Position numbers and translations under genes: made by a program. From an uncultured Sinobacteraceae bacterium (GTDB lineage: Bacteria > Pseudomonadota > Gammaproteobacteria > Nevskiales > Nevskiaceae): a stretch of DNA of 64,000 nucleotides. Under the pieces are notes generated by a model. That model was not told the DNA's origin. It was given only the letters and a program-made list of their open reading frames with translations, and searched no databases. Below, piece after piece: positions 10,840 through 20,384 of this stretch; the stretch's first letter is position 1, and every line of letters begins with the position of its first letter. The stretch is from the NCBI GenBank assembly GCA_903822975.1, contig CAIJRD010000020.1, positions 1 to 64,000 of the forward strand. The letters run 5' to 3'.

Positions 10840-11529
10840 CTAGACGCGCAGCCGATAACCCACGCCCGGCTCGGTGAGTATCAAGGCCGGACTTTCTGGA
10901 TCGGGTTCGAGCTTGCTGCGCAGCTGGCGAATGTAGACGCGCAAGTAGGCGACATCGTCTTCGTTGCTGGAACTCCAGACTTCGCGCAGAAGATGACGAT
11001 GCGTCAGCACCTTTCCGGCGTGAATCACCAACTGCTGCAGAATGCCGTATTCCTTCGGCGATAGTTTCACGTCCTCGCCATTGCGCGTCACCGTGCGGCG
11101 CACCAGATCGACCGAAAGCCCTTCGTTGTCGTACTCGGGCTTGCCGCCCTGATCCTGCACGCGATGGCGCAAGGCGGTGCGGATGCGCGCCATCAGTTCG
11201 TCCACGCCGAACGGTTTGGTGACGTAGTCGTCCGCACCGGCATCGAGGGCTTCGACCTTGCCGCGTTCGTCGTCGCGGCTCGACAGCACGATGATCGGCA
11301 ACGCCGAGGTTTCGCGCACGTTGCGGATCACGTCGAGGCCGTCGCCGTCGGGCAGACCGAGATCGAGAATCATCAGATCGACCTTGTGCAGCTTCAACAT
11401 CTCCAGCGCTTCGACAACGCTGCCGGCCTCATGGATCAGGTAGTCCTGCACGCGCAAGGTGTTGCGCAGCAAGCGCCGGATCGGCGGCTCGTCGTCGACG
11501 ATCAGGATGCGGCCGCCATCGACATTCAT
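10840..11529 (-). CDS. kdpE: Response regulator KdpE
   Basis: A 229-aa OmpR-type regulator that activates the kdp operon. The receiver domain has VDDEPP, phospho-acceptor Asp56 (LMILDLGLPDGDG) and Lys105 (VTKPF). The C-terminal winged helix is VKLSPKEYGILQQLV ... YLRVYIRQLRSKLE ... GVGYRLRV. Its ATG overlaps the kdpD stop by 4 bp (ATGA), so the kinase and regulator are coupled. It is the last gene of the leftward kdp cluster and converges with dsbC. Confidence 0.96.
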   Translation of the reverse strand: MNVDGGRILIVDDEPPIRRLLRNTLRVQDYLIHEAGSVVEALEMLKLHKVDLMILDLGLPDGDGLDVIRNVRETSALPIIVLSSRDDERGKVEALDAGADDYVTKPFGVDELMARIRTALRHRVQDQGGKPEYDNEGLSVDLVRRTVTRNGEDVKLSPKEYGILQQLVIHAGKVLTHRHLLREVWSSSNEDDVAYLRVYIRQLRSKLEPDPESPALILTEPGVGYRLRV

Positions 11530-14420
11530 GCAGCGCTGCTGCCGGTATTCACCTGCGGCTCGGGCTGTTCGGGTGTGTCGACCGCCGCACTCTTCGCGAG
11601 CTTTTCGGTTTTTTCCGCACGCTCGGCGCGATCCGGTTTCTCCGGCATGTCGGCGATGACTTCCGGCGAGAACTCGATGATGAATTCGGCGCCGCTGCGA
11701 TCGCTGCGATTGCGCGCATAAATGCGTCCGCCCATCGCTTCAATGAATCCGCGACAGATCGCCAGGCCCAGGCCGGTGCCGGAGCGGCCGCGGTCGCTGG
11801 CCTGACGCACGCGGAAGAACTTGTCGAACACACGGGGCAAGTCTTCTTCGGGAATGCCGGGGCCTTCGTCGCGCACGCTGATCGCAAGGCTGAACTTGTG
11901 GCGGCTGGCGCTGATCTCGATCTGCGTATCGGCCGGGGTGTACTTGGCGGCGTTGTCGAGCAGGTTGACCAGCACCTGCTCCATCAGCACATCGTCGAGT
12001 ACCAGCAGCGGCAGGTTGGCCGGAATCGCGAGCTTGATGCGGTGGTTCGACAACTGCTTGCCGCAGCGACGCACCGCAGCGTTGATCAGGTCCTGCAGAT
12101 CGCAGCTCTGCTTGTTCGGCACCAGCGCGCCGGCATCGAGCTGCGTCATGTCGAGCAGGTTGGCAACGTAGCGGTTGAGGCGCTCGGCTTCATCGAGCGC
12201 GGTTGCCAGCATTTCTTCGCGCGTGTCTTCGGTGTAGAGCTTGCCGTAGCTGCGCAGACTCGAGATCGAACCGATGATCGATGCCAGCGGCGTGCGCAGA
12301 TCGTGCGAGATCGAGGTCAACAGCGCCGAGCGCAGCTTCTCGGTTTCGGCCAGCATGCGCGCCTGATCGACGTCCTTGGCCAGGCGGATGCGCTCGGTCG
12401 CGATCGCCGCCAGATCGACCAGTGCGTCGAGCAGGCGGCGTTCGGGCGGTGTCAGCAGGAAGCCGGGCGCGCTGCGGCTGACGCCGATCACGCCCACTTT
12501 GCCTTGCCCCGTGCGCAGCGGCAGGAACAAGCGGCGCGTGCCGGGGAGGGTGTCGGTGCCGCGGCCGGTCGGCTGGTTGTGCTCCCAGCACCAGGTGGCG
12601 GCGGCGAGATCGGCGCTGTCCAGCGCGGCGCCATCCGGTGCACTGGCGGCGAGCTTCAGCACCTGCGAAGGACCATCCGGCAGCAGCAGCATCGCGTCGA
12701 CCTTCAGCATGTTCGCCACCTGGCCCGCGGTTGCCGCCAGCAAGGTGTCGAGCTTGCGAATGCCGGCAAGCTTGCGGCTGAACGCGAACAGCTCGGCCGT
12801 GGTCTTGGCCTGCTCACCGGCGATCGACGCGTGCAGGCGCTCGCGCGACGTCAGCGTGCTGGTGAGCGCACCGGCGATGCAGAAGAACACCAGCGCCAGC
12901 ACCTGGCTCGGGTCGGCGATGTTGAACGTGTAGAGCGGTTCGGCGAAGAAGAAGCTGTAGCAGAACGTCGACAACACCGAGGTGAACAGCGAGGGCCGCA
13001 GGCCGTAGCGCGCCGCACTCCACAACACCGCCGCGAGGAACACGATGGAGATGTTTGGCAGGTCGACCAAGGCCAGCACCGCGCGGCCGAGCAGCGTTGC
13101 CGCGCCGACCATCGCCGCGCTGTAGAAATAGCCGAGCGCGCGCTCCTGCAGATCCTGCCGACTGCCAAGGCGATACCCATGCCGACCCTGCACGTCGGGC
13201 GCCGGTGCGCCGTCCTCGTCCTTCGCTGCCGTCTTGTCGCGACCGCGCGCGCTGTCTTCGTTGGCTTCGGCGAGCACGTGCACATTGATGCCGCTGGGAC
13301 GCTTGACCAGCTCGTGCACCACCGAACCGTGCATCAGCTCGAACCACCAGGGCCGCGCGGATTTGCCGACGACGATCTGCGTGATGTTGTTGTCGCGCGC
13401 GAACGCCAGCACGTCGTCGGCGATGCGGCGCGTGCCCGGCAGCGTCATCGTCTCGGCGCCGAGTTGTTCGGCCAGGCGCATGGTGGTTGCGACGCGGTCG
13501 CGCTCGGCTTCGCTGAGCTGATGCGTACGCGCGGTTTCGAGGTAGATCGCAAACCATTCGGCATCGATGCGATCGGCGATGCGCTTGGCCGCGCGCACCA
13601 GGCCGGCGGCACCGGGCGATTCGTTGATACACACCAGAATGCGCTCGGATGCCGCCCAGATATCGCGGATCGCATGCTTGCGCATGTACTGCCGCATCTG
13701 ATCGTCGACGCGCTCGGCGGTGCGGCGCAGTGCCAGTTCGCGCAGTGCGGTGATGTTGCCCGGCTTGAAGTAATGGTCGAGCGCACGTTGTGCTTGCTGA
13801 CCGGCGTAGACCTTGCCTTCGCGCAAGCGCTGGATCAGTTCATCCGGCGTCAGGTCGATGACTTCGACATCGTCGGCGGTATCGAACACCGAATCCGGCA
13901 CGGTCTCGCGGATGCGCACGCGCGTGATGCGGGCGACGACATCGTTGAGGCTTTCGATGTGCTGGATGTTGAGCGTCGAATAGACATCGATGCCGGCGGC
14001 GCGCAATTCCTCGACATCCTGATAACGCTTCGGATGGCGCGAGCCTTCGGCGTTGGTGTGCGCCAGTTCATCGACCAGCACCAGCGCCGGACGACGCTTG
14101 AGGATGGCATCGATATCCATCTCCTCGAGCACGCGGCCCTTGTACTCGACCTGCTTGCGCGGCAGGATTTCCAGGCCATCGATCAGCGCACGGGTTTCGC
14201 TGCGGCCGTGCGTCTCGACGATGCCGACGGCGACATCGATGCCATCGTTCTTTTTCTTGTGCGCCGCCAGCAGCATCTCGTAGGTCTTGCCGACGCCGGG
14301 TGCGGCGCCGAGAAAGATCTTCAGCTTGCCACGACGCTCCTTCTGCGCCTCTTCCAGCAAGGCTTCCGGCGACGGGCGATTTTCGGTCTGCGGAGGCTGG
14401 GGCATGCGCGCGGGCGGCAA
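11526..14420 (-). CDS. kdpD: Sensor histidine kinase KdpD
   Basis: A 964-aa K+/turgor sensor kinase. In order: the cytosolic KdpD domain with Walker A GAAPGVGKT (38-46) and the VLVDELAHTN motif; a universal-stress-protein-like domain (about 257-385); four transmembrane helices (DUF4118, about 433-525); a GAF-like region (about 555-675); HisKA with phospho-His706 (SISHDLRTPLASI); and a HATPase domain ending in GTGLGLAICRGF. A Lys/Glu/Pro-rich tail of ~45 residues follows the ATPase domain, longer than in E. coli (894 aa overall). It is 15 bp after the GNAT gene and overlaps kdpE. Confidence 0.96.
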   Translation of the reverse strand: MPPARMPQPPQTENRPSPEALLEEAQKERRGKLKIFLGAAPGVGKTYEMLLAAHKKKNDGIDVAVGIVETHGRSETRALIDGLEILPRKQVEYKGRVLEEMDIDAILKRRPALVLVDELAHTNAEGSRHPKRYQDVEELRAAGIDVYSTLNIQHIESLNDVVARITRVRIRETVPDSVFDTADDVEVIDLTPDELIQRLREGKVYAGQQAQRALDHYFKPGNITALRELALRRTAERVDDQMRQYMRKHAIRDIWAASERILVCINESPGAAGLVRAAKRIADRIDAEWFAIYLETARTHQLSEAERDRVATTMRLAEQLGAETMTLPGTRRIADDVLAFARDNNITQIVVGKSARPWWFELMHGSVVHELVKRPSGINVHVLAEANEDSARGRDKTAAKDEDGAPAPDVQGRHGYRLGSRQDLQERALGYFYSAAMVGAATLLGRAVLALVDLPNISIVFLAAVLWSAARYGLRPSLFTSVLSTFCYSFFFAEPLYTFNIADPSQVLALVFFCIAGALTSTLTSRERLHASIAGEQAKTTAELFAFSRKLAGIRKLDTLLAATAGQVANMLKVDAMLLLPDGPSQVLKLAASAPDGAALDSADLAAATWCWEHNQPTGRGTDTLPGTRRLFLPLRTGQGKVGVIGVSRSAPGFLLTPPERRLLDALVDLAAIATERIRLAKDVDQARMLAETEKLRSALLTSISHDLRTPLASIIGSISSLRSYGKLYTEDTREEMLATALDEAERLNRYVANLLDMTQLDAGALVPNKQSCDLQDLINAAVRRCGKQLSNHRIKLAIPANLPLLVLDDVLMEQVLVNLLDNAAKYTPADTQIEISASRHKFSLAISVRDEGPGIPEEDLPRVFDKFFRVRQASDRGRSGTGLGLAICRGFIEAMGGRIYARNRSDRSGAEFIIEFSPEVIADMPEKPDRAERAEKTEKLAKSAAVDTPEQPEPQVNTGSSAA

Positions 14421-15569: not shown

Positions 15570-16232
15570 TTACTTGGCGCTATCGGTCGTCGGCGCGCTG
15601 GGGGCTGCTTCTGCGCTGGCCGCGGCGGCGGCGGGCGCCAGCGCGTCGAGCGCCAGGTTCAGCTGCAGAACGTTGACCACCGGTTCGCCGATGATGCCGA
15701 GCCATCGCGGCTCGGTGTGTTCGGCAACCAGCTGATTCAAGGCATCGCGGCTCATTCCACGCGCTTTCGCGACGCGCGGCAGCTGGAACAGCGCGGCGGC
15801 CGGCGAGATGTCCGGGTCGAGCCCGCTCGCCGAGGTCGTCACCAGGTCCACCGGCACGGCGACGTCGGGGTTCTCGGCCTTCAGCTTGTCGGTATCGGCC
15901 TTGACGCGATCGATCAGCGACTTCGAGGTCGTGCCGAGATTCGATCCGCCCGAGTTGGCCGCGTTGTAAGGCGAGGGCACGGTCTTGGTCGCATCGTTCG
16001 GATCGGTATCCACGGTGGCCGACGGCCGGCCGTGGAAGTATTTCTCAGACGTGAAGGTCTGGCCGATCAGATCGGATCCGATCACCTTGCCGTCGCGCTC
16101 GATCAGGCTGCCGCCGGCCTGGTGCGGGAAGAGCTTGGCGCCGATGCCGGTGATCGCCAGCGGATAGGCGAGGCCGGTGACTATCGTGAACAGCGCGAAC
16201 AGGACGATCGCGGGACGCAATTGACTAAGCAT
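15570..16232 (-). CDS. kdpC: Potassium-transporting ATPase subunit KdpC
   Basis: A 220-aa subunit with one N-terminal transmembrane helix ([20 protein letters not shown]) and a periplasmic domain. Signature stretches are [35 protein letters not shown] and [10 protein letters not shown]. It stabilises the KdpFABC complex that imports K+ with high affinity. It is somewhat longer than the E. coli subunit (190 aa) because of an Ala/Pro-rich tail. It starts 10 bp after the kdpB stop. Confidence 0.96.
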
Positions 16233-16242
16233 GGATGTCTCC

Positions 16243-18297
16243 TTAAACCAGACCGATCGCTGAAATCAGCAGATCGATCGCCTTGATTCCAATGAACGGC
16301 GCAATGATGCCGCCGACGCCGTACACCAGCAGGTTGCGCATCAGCAGCGGGCCGGCGCCGATCGGGCGGTATTTCACGCCACGCAGCGCCAGCGGGATCA
16401 GCGCCACGATGATCAGCGCGTTGAAGATGATCGCCGACAGGATCGCGCTCTGCGGCGAATGCAGACGCATCACGTTGAGCGCGTTGAGCTGCGGATAGAT
16501 CGCGGCAAACATCGCCGGAATGATCGCGAAATACTTGGCGACATCGTTGGCGATCGAGAACGTGGTGAGTGCACCGCGCGTCATCAGCAACTGCTTGCCG
16601 ATGCCGACGATCTCGATCAACTTGGTCGGATCGGAATCCAGATCGACCATGTTGCCGGCTTCGCGTGCGGCCATCGTGCCGGTCTGCATCGCCACGCCGA
16701 CATCGGCCTGCGCCAGCGCCGGTGCGTCGTTGGTGCCGTCGCCGCACATCGCCACCAGCTTGCCTTCGGCCTGCTCTTTCCGAATCAGCGCGAGCTTGTC
16801 TTCAGGCGTGGCCTGCGCGAGGAAGTCGTCGACGCCGGCTTCGGCGGCGATCGCGGCGGCCGTGAGCGGATTGTCGCCGGTGATCATCACGGTGCGGATG
16901 CCCATCAGGCGCAGTTCGGCGAAGCGCTCCTTGATGCCGCCCTTGACGATGTCCTTCAGGTAGATCACGCCGAGCACGCGGCCATCCTTGGCCACCGCCA
17001 GCGGCGTACCACCGGCGCGCGAGATCTTGTCGGCGATGTCGGTCAGCGCACCCGGAATCGCACGCGAACCGGATTCGCGCTCGACGTAGGCGATGATCGC
17101 AGCGACGGCGCCCTTGCGGATCTGGCTGCCGCCGACATCGATACCGGACATGCGCGTCTGCGCGCTGAACGGCACGAAGCGCACGTGCTGGTCGGCGAGA
17201 TCGCGACCGCGCAGACCGTACTTCTCTTTTGCCAGCACCACCACACTGCGACCTTCCGGCGTTTCATCCGACAGGCTCGCCAGCTGTGCGGCATCGGCGA
17301 GTTCGGTTTCGGTGACGCCGGGAACCGCGATGAATTCCGCCGCCTGGCGATTGCCGAGCGTGATGGTGCCGGTCTTGTCGAGCAGCAGCGTATCGACGTC
17401 GCCGGCGGCTTCCACCGCGCGGCCCGACATCGCCAACACGTTGAAGCGCACCAGACGATTCATGCCGGCGATACCGATCGCCGACAGCAACGCACCGATG
17501 GTGGTCGGAATCAGCGTGACGAACAGCGCCACCAGCACGATCACCGGAATGCTGCCGCCGGCATATTTGGCAAAGCTCGGAATCGTCGCGGTCGCAAAGA
17601 CGAAGATCAGCGACATGCCGGCGAGCAAAATGTTGAGCGCAATCTCGTTCGGTGTTTTCTGGCGCGATGCGCCTTCGACCAGCGCGATCATGCGATCGAT
17701 GAAGCTCGAACCTTGCGCCGCGGTGATCTTCACCTTCAGCTGATCCGACAGCACGCGCGTGCCGCCGGTGACTGCGGAGCGATCGCCACCGGATTCGCGA
17801 ATCACCGGCGCGGACTCACCGGTGATCGCGGATTCGTCGACGGTGGCAACGCCGTCGATCACTTCGCCGTCGCTCGGAATCAGATCGTTCGGCTGCACCA
17901 GCACCAGGTCGCCGACCTTCAACTCGGTCGCCGCAACCTGCTCGAACGCCAGACCCTCGGACGACTTCAGCCGCTTGGCGATGGTCTGCGTCTTGGTCTT
18001 GCGCAGCGTCGCGGCCTGCGCTTTGCCGCGACCTTCGGCGATGGCCTCCGCGAAGTTGGCGAACAGCACGGTGAACCACAGCCAGACGATCACCTGGCCG
18101 GAGAACAGCAGCGCACCGCGGCCCATCAGTGCATCACGCACGAACAGGACGGTGGCCAGCGCCGCGACCAGGGCGGTGATGAAGATCACCGGGTTGCGCA
18201 TCAGCGTGCGCGGATTGAGCTTGATGAACGAGTCGCGGATCGCCGGCGCGATCAGCGCACGGTCGAACAACGCGGGTGCCGTTTTGGAGGCGGACAT
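16243..18297 (-). CDS. kdpB: Potassium-transporting P-type ATPase subunit KdpB
   Basis: A 684-aa P-type ATPase that energises K+ import. Visible motifs are TGES (159-162), the phosphorylation site Asp307 in DKTGT (same number as in E. coli), the nucleotide-binding [11 protein letters not shown] region and the hinge [16 protein letters not shown]. The seven-helix membrane region is intact and the length is normal. It lies between kdpA and kdpC in the usual order. No missing residues were noticed. Confidence 0.97.
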
Positions 18298-18360: not shown

Positions 18361-20088
18361 TCAATAGAGCGTGCCGGCCTGCAGCGACAGGTGCTCGACG
18401 ATCGGACCCAGCGCCAGCGCCGGGAAGAACGTCAGGCCGCCGACGATCAGCAGCACGCCAACCAACAGGCTGATGAAAAGTCCGCCATCGGTCGGGAAGG
18501 TGCCCGCGCTCGGATGCGTGTACTTCTTCGCCACCAACGAGCCGGCCACCGCCATCATCGGCACGATGAAGGCGAAGCGGCCGATCATCATCGCCGCCGC
18601 CAGCAGCAGGTTGTAGAACGGCGTGTTCGCAGTCAGGCCCGCGAACGCGCTACCGTTGTTGCCGGTGGCCGAGGTGAACGCGTAAAGGATTTCCGAGAAG
18701 CCATGCGGTCCGCTGTTGTTGAGACCGGCGAGCCCCTGCGGCAGCACCGCGGCGAGTGCGGTGAAGCCGAGGATCGATGCCGGCAGGCAGAGGATGGCGA
18801 GCATCGTCATCTTCACTTCCTTGGCTTCGATCTTCTTGCCGACATACTCGGGCGTTCGTCCGACCATCAGACCGGCGATGAATACCGCGATGATGGCGTA
18901 CAGCAACATGCCGTAGAGGCCGGAGCCGACACCACCGAAGATTACTTCGCCGAGCTGAATGTTGATCATCGGCACCATGCCGCCCAGCGGCGTGAAGCTG
19001 TCATGCATGCCGTTGACCGCGCCGCATGAGGCATCCGTGGTGATGGTGGCGAACAAGGCCGATCGTGCGATGCCGAAGCGCGCTTCCTTGCCTTCCATGT
19101 TGCCGCCCGGCTGCAGCGCACCGGCGCTCTGGTCGATGCCCATTGCCGGGAACGCGGGGTTGCCCTGGCTTTCGGCCCAGTACAGCGTGGTGACGCCGGC
19201 AAGAAACACCACTGCCATTGCCGAGTAGATCGCCCAGCCCTGCAGTTCGCTCTTGACCATGCGACCAAACACGTTGGTCAGCGCGGCGGGAATCAGGAAG
19301 ATCAGGATGATTTGCAGGAAGTCCGAAATCGAATTCGGATTCTCGAACGGATGTGCGGCATTGGCGTTGAAGAAGCCACCGCCGTTGGTGCCGAGCATCT
19401 TGATCGCGATCTGCGAGGCCACCGGGCCCTGCGCGATGGTTTGCTTGGCGCCTTCCAGGGTCGCGACGTCGGTGTAGGCGCCGAGATTCTGCGGCATGCC
19501 CTGCCAGATCAGGAACAGCGCGGCGACGATCGACAGCGGCAACAGGATGTACAGCGTGGTGCGCGTCAGGTCGACCCAGAAGTTGCCGAGCGTCTTGCCC
19601 GAGCGGCGCGCGAAGCCGCGCACCAAAGCCATTGCCAGCGCGATGCCGGTCGCCGCCGAGACGAAGTTGTGCACGGTCAGGCCGAGCATCTGCGTCAGGT
19701 AGCTCATCGTCGACTCGCCGCCGTACGACTGCCAATTGGTATTGGTGATGAAGCTGATCGCCGTGTTGAACGCGAGGTCGGGCGTCAGGTTGTCCATGCC
19801 CTGCGGATTCAGCGGCAGGTGCTTCTGCGTCAGCTGCAACACATACAGCGTGACGAAGCAGACCAGGTTGAACACCAGCATCGCCAGCGTGTAGGTGGTC
19901 CAATGCTGCTCGGCGTCGGGTTTCACGCCGGCGAGCTTGTAGAAGCCGCGTTCGACCGGCCCGAGCACGCGGCCAATGAAGGTCGGCTTGCCTTCCAGCA
20001 CGCGATAGATGAAGCCGCCGAGCGGTCGCGTCAGGACCGTCAGCACGCCGAAGTAGAGAAGAATCTGGATCCAGCCGTTGGTGGTCAT
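18361..20088 (-). CDS. kdpA: Potassium-transporting ATPase subunit KdpA
   Basis: A 575-aa K+-binding, channel-like subunit of the KdpFABC complex in the inner membrane. Selectivity-filter-like loops are visible as [38 protein letters not shown] and [13 protein letters not shown]. Length agrees with the family (557 aa in E. coli). It follows kdpF after 6 bp. Confidence 0.97.
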
Positions 20089-20094
20089 GGCTTT

Positions 20095-20184
20095 TTAGAA
20101 TTTTTCCGGTTTGATCAGGGCGTAAACCAGGAAGCCCAGCAGGAAGACGGCAGTGGCGCCGCCGAGTACGTAGTCGAGCGTCAT
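20095..20184 (-). CDS. kdpF: KdpF small subunit
   Basis: A 29-aa single-span lipid-like stabiliser of the KdpFABC complex. The sequence begins MTLDYVLGGATAVFLLGF and ends LVYALIKPEKF; the Leu-x-x-Pro-Glu-Lys/Arg-Phe ending is the KdpF hallmark. The ATG at 20184 is preceded by AAAGG at good spacing, and a longer in-frame extension upstream is not KdpF-like. It is 6 bp before kdpA and 10 bp after the 40-aa peptide gene. Confidence 0.92.
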   Translation of the reverse strand: MTLDYVLGGATAVFLLGFLVYALIKPEKF

Positions 20185-20194
20185 CGAGGGACCT

Positions 20195-20317
20195 TTAGAG
20201 GCGATCGCACAGCGTGATGTAGGCGGCGAGAACGCCGAACCCGGCCAAGCCGGCAGCCAGCAGGAGGAAGACCATGGGCGAAATGCCAAGCGCACCGGAC
20301 AATTCCGGCGAGCGCAT
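20195..20317 (-). CDS. 40-aa hydrophobic peptide gene heading the kdp operon
   Basis: A short frame from ATG 20317 to TAA 20195, below usual gene-calling limits. The product starts MRSPELSGALGISP, has one transmembrane segment (MVFLLLAAGLAGFGVLAAYI) and ends TLCDRL. An internal ATG at Met15 (about 20275) would give a 26-aa version. It stops 10 bp before kdpF on the same strand, so it should be the first gene of the kdp transcript. I recall similar unannotated hydrophobic peptides with a C-[DE]-R-L ending upstream of kdpF in other proteobacteria, but cannot verify that here. A role as a further small Kdp subunit is inference. Confidence 0.6.
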   Translation of the reverse strand: MRSPELSGALGISPMVFLLLAAGLAGFGVLAAYITLCDRL

Positions 20318-20365
20318 TTAACGGCCGATCGCCGTTGGAATGCCAGATGCGAAAGCGCGCGGCGA

Positions 20366-20384
20366 CATAAAGAATCCGTAAAGA
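20366..20384 (-). promoter_or_regulatory. Candidate KdpE box upstream of the kdp operon
   Basis: On the - strand the segment reads TCTTTACGGATTCTTTATG: two TTTA(C/T) half-sites in direct repeat, about 50 bp before the first kdp start codon. The E. coli KdpE site also consists of TTTA(T/C)A-type direct repeats, so this is a reasonable operator. No clear sigma-70 hexamers were found. Confidence 0.4.

What the first reader, a model, noticed from the sequence alone, without database searches (positions are those of the whole stretch)
20195..20317. Unannotated 40-aa membrane peptide as first gene of the kdp operon
An ATG-to-TAA frame with one hydrophobic helix and a CDRL end lies 10 bp before kdpF. 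KdpF is itself a 29-aa structural subunit, so a second micropeptide at the head of the operon is a good candidate for an additional pump component or regulator. Its size makes it invisible to routine annotation.
Basis: partly seen in the sequence, partly recalled or inferred. Interest (0 to 1): 0.58.

Follow-up and report, generated by a model that had tools for sequence, protein, structure and literature searches.

The report
Overlooked small potassium-pump membrane peptide
Next to the genes for a well-studied bacterial potassium pump sits a tiny, mostly unannotated membrane peptide that is conserved across several bacterial phyla but missing in E. coli K-12, so it may be a pump part that work on E. 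coli could not see.

Summary
The frame is real and is the first gene of a kdp operon (Z-F-A-B-C, then kdpD). The start given is probably 14 codons too early. The conserved gene is 26 codons long (20275..20195, minus strand: MVFLLLAAGLAGFGVLAAYITLCDRL); the stretch before it looks like a promoter -10 and a leader hairpin.

I call the peptide KdpZ-like (Z). No Pfam or NCBIfam model covers its family. Of 321 kdp loci scanned, 187 hold Z and kdpF, 2 Z alone, 111 kdpF alone, 21 neither. In 398 Pseudomonadota genomes 82 of 86 Z-profile matches lie beside kdpA. Z also stands beside kdpA in Chloroflexota, Actinomycetota, Planctomycetota, Nitrospirota, Deinococcota and Clostridia. E. coli K-12 lacks it, and no Z was called in the Pseudomonas and Enterobacteriaceae loci examined.

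Substitutions follow its reading frame, it has Shine-Dalgarno sites, and 74 of 185 copies overlap kdpF by 4 or 1 bases. It stays with the operon when gene order changes.

Most likely Z is a second small membrane subunit or assembly partner of the pump; this is inferred. Prior print: C. acetobutylicum kdpZYABCXDE, perhaps the same gene, not checked.

The parts
20195..20275 (-). Z (KdpZ-like) gene, 26 codons, MVFLLLAAGLAGFGVLAAYITLCDRL
   Evidence: Conserved frame in relatives; family profile match 5.1e-6 in its own genome at 20198-20275 (the window peptide is itself a row of that profile)
20276..20317 (-).
   Evidence: No in-frame ATG at this place in 10 of 15 relatives, one in 5; overlaps a TTAAATG element and a hairpin
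20290..20315 (-). Leader hairpin just after the inferred -10
   Evidence: MFE -19 kcal/mol, z -2.57; stem with changed pairs in several relatives by inspection (13 chosen sequences; L010, L014 and L025 do not show the element)
20316..20321 (-). TTAAAT, inferred -10 element (holds the first letters of the ATG of the 40-aa frame)
   Evidence: 45 nt after the KdpE-like box; AAT invariant in 13 chosen sequences, window included. Inference; the sigma-70 consensus scan found no promoter
20367..20382 (-). KdpE-like box TTTACGGATTCTTTAT (direct repeat, period 11)
   Evidence: same form as the E. coli K-12 sequence found; that this is the KdpE site is recalled
20095..20184 (-). kdpF, 29 aa
   Evidence: Pfam PF09604 2.7e-8, NCBIfam TIGR02115 1e-8
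18361..20088 (-). kdpA, 575 aa
   Evidence: PF03814 2.9e-251
16243..18297 (-). kdpB, 684 aa
   Evidence: ORF with the P-type ATPase motif DKTGTIT; name from sequence and position, no family search run
15570..16232 (-). kdpC, 220 aa
   Evidence: ORF; name from position and recalled features, no family search run
11526..14420 (-). kdpD, about 964 aa, sensor kinase
   Evidence: PF02702 6.2e-101, ORF

Best explanation
Z is a real small membrane protein, one helix with its N-terminus outside and its C-[DE]-[RK]-L end inside (orientation inferred from the family's charge pattern). It is made from the first cistron of the kdp mRNA, coupled to translation of kdpF, and most likely binds the Kdp pump (KdpA/KdpB/KdpF in the membrane) as a second small subunit or assembly/stability partner, as KdpF does in E. 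coli (recalled). Shown here: the gene, its selection as protein, its near-restriction to kdp loci in the genomes searched, its place as first cistron after a KdpE-like box. Inferred: binding to the pump and stabilising or tuning it. E. coli K-12 lacks the gene, and no Z was called in the Pseudomonas and Enterobacteriaceae kdp loci examined.
For: Protein-level selection: 45 disjoint pairs of Z genes differ at codon positions 1/2/3 by 250/168/409 (p 9e-22); pooled dN/dS 0.42 in the window's genus against 1.09 and 1.38 in the other frames, and 0.15-0.32 in four other groups. Location: of 86 profile matches in 398 Pseudomonadota genomes 82 lie within 700 nt of kdpA (median 161); 81 of 136 genomes with KdpA and 3 of 262 without have a match (the profile rows come largely from these same kdp loci, so the telling part is how few matches lie elsewhere). 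Of the 4 others, one precedes kdpF at a contig end and one precedes a truncated kdpF, by eye. Reverse-strand controls: 1 weak match (E 0.37) in 743 ORFs, 1 (E 0.45), 0. Gene structure: SD-like site at Z in 149 of 187, against 15 of 187 forty nt and 12 of 186 sixty nt upstream; Z stop to kdpF start median 2 nt, -4 overlap in 59 and -1 in 15 of 185. Expression unit: KdpE-like box to Z start median 88 nt (62 of 179 loci with a box), to kdpF start median 88 nt in loci called kdpF-only (64 of 110); a box between Z and kdpF in 0 of 184. Rearranged operons keep Z: F-Z-A (L044, L167), B-Z-A with no kdpF between (G516), B-Z-F-A-C in Deinococcus radiodurans (L191). Phyletic: found in loci of eight phyla by record name or phylum search.
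Against: No binding, proteomic or ribosome-profiling data were seen. Many pumps lack Z (111 of 321 loci called kdpF-only, a count inflated by missed Z), E. coli K-12 among them, so Z is not required for the pump as such. In the window's genus Z is less constrained than kdpF (dN/dS 0.42 against 0.16). The KdpA chains of the PDB that match are three sequences of 557 residues in 25 entries (E. coli origin recalled), so no structure shows a site for Z. The family is variable (mean column identity 37%), and the window's own peptide lacks the family's acidic residue near the N-terminus. Two matches are in genomes without a KdpA match (G641, well formed; G361, partial and not inspected).
Confidence: 0.6

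Rival explanations
1. Z is a membrane regulator of the sensor kinase KdpD (or of its separate membrane half), in the manner of MgrB and PhoQ (recalled), giving feedback on K+ status, and not a pump part.
For: kdpD lies in the same operon in the window; 79 of 80 kdp genomes tested carry a KdpD domain, with and without Z. The start of the abstract of PMC3618439 says that membrane peptides can interact with sensor kinases (listing).
Against: Six of the 12 Chloroflexota genomes (G929, G911, G963, G888, G944, G968) have a single KdpD match, in a frame of only 390-473 aa, too short for the membrane and kinase parts; five of their loci have Z and the sixth (L320, G929) a Z frame at E 0.041. G451 has Z and no KdpD match. 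Z sits by kdpF/kdpA, not by kdpD. Caveat: in D. radiodurans the other half of KdpD is a separate gene (PMC5716572, passages), so a membrane kinase partner is not excluded.
Confidence: 0.15
2. Z is a non-stoichiometric assembly or insertion factor for KdpFABC that is not part of the finished pump.
For: Same genomic evidence as the subunit reading: tight coupling, single helix, near-restriction to kdp loci.
Against: None specific; not separable by sequence.
Confidence: 0.15
3. Z is a leader ORF whose translation matters (coupling or attenuation of kdpF) but whose peptide does nothing.
For: First cistron, often overlapping kdpF by ATGA, with a structured leader in the window and several relatives.
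Against: Amino-acid sequence under selection, with preferred D2/3, F13 and C-D/E-R/K-L over several phyla; Z also found after kdpF, or inside the operon after kdpB, where a leader role makes little sense.
Confidence: 0.06
4. Chance hydrophobic frame in GC-rich DNA.
For: Shuffles give such a frame in 4 of 2000.
Against: The conservation, codon and location tests above.
Confidence: 0.01

Closest known systems
KdpF (PF09604, TIGR02115), 29-aa subunit of KdpFABC
   Same: Tiny single-helix membrane protein in the same operon behind the same KdpE-like box
   Different: The window's Z does not match the KdpF models, nor do 61 members; profile comparison probability 13.5%; Z lacks the RPExF-type end; 187 loci have both
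Clostridium acetobutylicum kdpZ (orfZ) of kdpZYABCXDE, Treuner-Lange et al. 1997
   Same: Two genes, Z and Y, precede kdpA there (transcript name read in a passage of PMC5401905). That orfZ and orfY were described as putative hydrophobic peptides of unknown role is recalled; the paper is not held
   Different: Its sequence was not obtained, so homology is not tested; other genomes of the Christensenella phylum carry Z before kdpF (6 of 18 loci). I recall no link to a family across phyla
CydX, AcrZ, MgtS, MgrB-type small membrane subunits and regulators
   Same: Single-helix accessory proteins of larger membrane proteins (recalled)
   Different: No direct comparison run; no Pfam or NCBIfam model of theirs was matched at E up to 0.1

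Membership tests
KdpF | Match to PF09604 / TIGR02115 / PRK147xx models | tested here: not met
   none of 61 Z members matches at E up to 0.1
KdpF | Profile similarity to KdpF alignment | tested here: inconclusive
   hhalign probability 13.5%, E 0.0021 for this one comparison, 9% identity over 22 columns; two hydrophobic helices align a little in any case
KdpF | R-P-E-x-F type C-terminal end | tested here: not met
   Z ends in C-[DE]-[RK]-L
Kdp-linked Z family (defined here) | Mostly 26-31 aa, D at residue 2 or 3, F at 13, end C-[DE]-[RK]-[LI] | tested here: met
   Window peptide: 26 aa, F13 and CDRL present, profile match 5.1e-6 (but it is a row of the profile); V stands where most have D
Kdp-linked Z family (defined here) | Next to kdpF/kdpA | tested here: met
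   10 nt before kdpF
Small accessory subunit of the Kdp complex | Single transmembrane helix | tested here: met
   Hydropathy only; no structure predicted
Small accessory subunit of the Kdp complex | Cotranscription and coupled translation with kdpFABC | tested here: inconclusive
   Inferred from box spacing, gaps and SD sites; no RNA data seen
Small accessory subunit of the Kdp complex | Physical presence in the purified complex | not testable with these tools
   Needs biochemistry
C. acetobutylicum orfZ/kdpZ | Sequence homology | not tested
   Sequence not obtained; paper not held

The most novel reading that the evidence does not exclude
The ancestral and widespread form of the pump is a five-component KdpZFABC. 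The E. coli pump, source (recalled) of the solved structures, is a reduced form that lost Z. Z occupies its own membrane site and sets assembly or activity in many other bacteria.
Probability: 0.4. Interest if true: 0.82.

Novelty: new variant of a known kind. Interest (0 to 1): 0.7.

Why it matters
KdpFABC is a model for P-type ATPases, and its structures show four subunits (recalled). A fifth gene that travels with the pump across phyla but is missing from the model organism would mean that the model is incomplete for many bacteria. It gives a testable target, a family profile for annotation, and a corrected start codon. It may also explain part of a 'structured 5' UTR' before kdpF: the leader of about 100 nt described for Caulobacter (PMC8552747, passages) is long enough to hold Z, as the DNA before kdpF does in Phenylobacterium of the same family (L197). 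The Caulobacter sequence itself was not looked at.

Tried and rejected
Considered and rejected: a chance ORF; a KdpF duplicate; a known RNA element over the region (only a sub-threshold match, E 0.96, to an sRNA family); the full 40-aa reading (5 of 15 relatives keep an in-frame upstream ATG). A solved relative of Z: none convincing (none; two chains, E 0.35 and 2). Presence and absence of Z on a KdpA tree (212 sequences, FastTree) needs 21 changes against 66 in shuffled labels: clustered, but gains and losses cannot be told apart, and long branches (L012 most of all) make the tree rough. KdpD dependence: see rivals.

Weak points of the counts. One search left out 3 loci with under 250 nt upstream and skipped L001 and L057 (duplicates) and both loci of G060 (L028, L031: broken kdpA, although Z was found there). 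It missed Z in L053, L027 and L320, where a Z frame is visible, and L007, L012, L029, L046 and L338 may be wrongly placed; so Z counts are lower limits and 'kdpF only' and 'neither' upper ones. Some loci are near relatives of each other; therefore used disjoint pairs, but the pooled dN/dS did not. The profile was built from seeds of the same loci, and the later one from L001-L201. Searches are drawn samples of one phylum, to all appearance the same 398 genomes (same handles). Of the 136 genomes with KdpA I read 129 as L058-L186 and 5 in other sets; G374 and G465 (fragments) were not read; 18 loci read of 21 genomes with a match (the others weak or fragments); 30 loci read of 41 genomes with a match. 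One search kept 80 of 587 or more, ranked by closeness to an Enterococcus sequence. Actinobacteria: six plasmid records only; 4 match (E 4e-7 to 7e-4), one is doubtful (L192, E 0.54), one shows none (L343). In one search I used 13 of the 16 leaders: L016 and L022 are near-copies of L015, and L010 lacks the element, as do L014 and L025. Literature: searches listed 20 of 40 and 20 of 492 papers; two off-topic hits and the one were not opened.

Full report
What is there. On the minus strand of the window lie a 40-codon frame (20317..20195), kdpF (20184..20095), kdpA (20088..18361), kdpB (18297..16243), kdpC (16232..15570) and kdpD (14420..11526). The frame has one hydrophobic helix, ends CDRL, and stops 10 nt before kdpF. 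No Pfam model matches it and NCBIfam gives only a sub-threshold sorting-tail match, E 0.12; among 61 family members each library gives only scattered single-member matches, best E 0.015.

The start. In the two closest sequences (L002, L009) the AATG of the window's 20317 is kept as part of TTAAATG but is out of frame with the peptide, while the ATG at 20275 and what follows is kept. Over the 15 relatives, 10 have no in-frame ATG there; 5 (L004, L015, L016, L018, L022) have one, 13 codons before the short start, so the longer form is not excluded in them. The segment between folds into a hairpin, whose stem is kept with changed pairs in several relatives (by inspection of 13 chosen leaders); L010, L014 and L025 lack the element. 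A KdpE-like direct repeat, TTTACGGATTCTTTAT, lies at 20382..20367. In Z-bearing loci such a box is found in 62 of 179 (0.4 expected from mononucleotide shuffles), ending a median of 88 nt before the Z start; in loci called kdpF-only it is found in 64 of 110 (0.7 expected), ending a median of 88 nt before kdpF. E. coli K-12 has 83. In the window the distance is 91 nt to the ATG at 20275 but 49 nt to that at 20317. With the E. coli footprint spacing (recalled) the transcript would begin near 20310, after the ATG of the 40-aa form. So the gene is most likely 26 codons. This spacing argument is inference; a sigma-70 consensus scan found no promoter.

The family. I searched kdpA in the window's relatives, class and phylum, in named genomes of many phyla, in the phylum of a Christensenella and that of a Thermomicrobiales genome, and on plasmids, and scanned the DNA before kdpA. 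A profile from 26 seeds drawn from these loci found Z in 124 loci, with one weak match in 743 reverse-strand ORFs. In a uniform scan of 321 loci, 187 have kdpF and Z, 2 Z alone, 111 kdpF alone, 21 neither. By set, Z with kdpF: 86 of 129 in the phylum sample, 19 of 26 relatives, 14 of 23 in the class, 27 of 30 Chloroflexota, 6 of 18 in the Christensenella phylum, 26 of 80 named loci, 9 of 15 plasmid loci. Named loci with Z include Planctomycetaceae and Blastopirellula, Chloroflexi, Ignavibacteriae, Nitrospirae, a deltaproteobacterium and Methylococcaceae; those without a Z call include Pseudomonas, Enterobacter, Bacteroides, Hymenobacter and Enterococcus. Deinococcus radiodurans (6.5e-11; it was already in the profile), Nonomuraea (4e-7), Rhodococcus sp. 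ZPP (9e-7), Arthrobacter (8e-6) and Streptomyces (7e-4) carry it; before kdpF of E. coli K-12 the best ORF has E 3.1.

Is it tied to kdp? Searching 398 whole Pseudomonadota genomes with the Z profile A2 gave 86 matches in 84 genomes at E up to 0.01; 82 lie within 700 nt of kdpA. 81 of 136 genomes with KdpA and 3 of 262 without had a match. Rows of A2 come largely from such loci, so finding them again is expected; the point is that almost nothing is found elsewhere, about what E 0.01 allows by chance. Of the four others, G421 is a Z-kdpF pair at a contig end, G652 a second Z before a truncated kdpF, G641 a well-formed Z-like frame in a genome without a KdpA match, and G361 a partial match not inspected.

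Is it coding? Among 45 disjoint pairs, substitutions at codon positions 1, 2, 3 are 250, 168, 409. Pooled dN/dS is 0.42 in the window's genus (kdpF 0.16) and 0.15, 0.20, 0.32 and 0.31 in four other groups (kdpF 0.25, 0.16, 0.47, 0.23); the two other frames of Z give 0.85 to 2.8. Z is therefore constrained, in the window's genus less than kdpF. SD-like sites precede Z in 149 of 187 and kdpF in 140 of 187, against 15 of 187 and 12 of 186 at control distances. The gap from Z to kdpF is -4 in 59, -1 in 15 and 0-20 in 95 of 185.

How it may work. The preferred features are D at position 2 or 3 (86%), F13 (78%), and C (60%), D/E (67%), R/K (81%), L/I (94%) at the end (percentages of the letters in each column). 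Mean net charge is -0.9 over the first five residues and +0.9 from residue 21, so N-out, C-in by the positive-inside rule. The window's own peptide lacks the acidic residue. Z is kept when the operon is rearranged: after kdpF (L044, L167), between kdpB and kdpA with no kdpF between them (G516; kdpF elsewhere in that genome was not sought), and after kdpB in D. radiodurans. The partner shared by all these is the pump. Six Chloroflexota genomes hold only a short KdpD, which speaks against KdpD as the general partner, although a separate membrane kinase may exist, as described for D. radiodurans (PMC5716572, passages). I therefore favour a pump subunit or assembly partner. Which surface it binds is unknown.

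What is in print. PMC5401905 cites a kdpZYABCXDE transcript of C. acetobutylicum (passage); the original (Treuner-Lange et al. 1997) is not held and its description of orfZ and orfY as hydrophobic peptides is recalled. I saw no other mention of such a gene in the listings of searches or in the passages opened; the library holds open-licence papers only, and searches listed only part of their hits. The small-protein papers opened by term search mention KdpF or no kdp gene in the passages returned. In annotated records Z is, or lies inside, a 'hypothetical protein' twice, is 'potassium ABC transporter ATPase' once, and is not annotated in the records (PLSDB's tables are incomplete, as the tool states).

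Scores. The existence of the gene and the family is near certain. The function is inferred. A specialist would find a conserved, unnamed fifth kdp gene absent from the model organism surprising, and it is directly testable; the 1997 mention and the plain kind (small accessory membrane protein) hold the score below the top.

Noticed in passing
L083, L085, L087-L089, L099, L101, L104, L110 (between kdpF and kdpA): A third hydrophobic peptide frame of about 24-34 aa between kdpF and kdpA in one Pseudomonadota family (f209), e.g. MITLVEVVLAFVVTSALLIALIRLLLPAKKS. Conservation not tested.
   Followed up: no
L082, L102, L103, L105 (between kdpF and kdpA): A frame of about 60-85 aa with an N-terminal hydrophobic stretch and a PPFxRK or PPFLRI-like end between kdpF and kdpA. 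Not identified.
   Followed up: no
window 20290-20315 and relatives: Leader hairpin just after the inferred -10 of the kdp promoter, with changed pairs in several relatives and absent in others.
   Followed up: partly
G516 (L175, L349) and G623 (L174): Rearranged kdp loci: kdpB-Z-kdpA with no kdpF between, and kdpB-kdpA with neither small gene between.
   Followed up: partly
G641 (L348) and G652 (L347): A well-formed Z-like frame in a genome without a KdpA match, and a second Z beside a truncated kdpF: possible relics of lost kdp operons.
   Followed up: partly
L196:1008-1112: The Z peptide is named 'potassium ABC transporter ATPase' in a RefSeq record (WP_191287747.1), a misleading name.
   Followed up: yes
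Chloroflexota genomes G929, G911, G963, G888, G944, G968: Single KdpD match in frames of only 390-473 aa, i.e. a shortened KdpD, as described for Deinococcus.
   Followed up: partly
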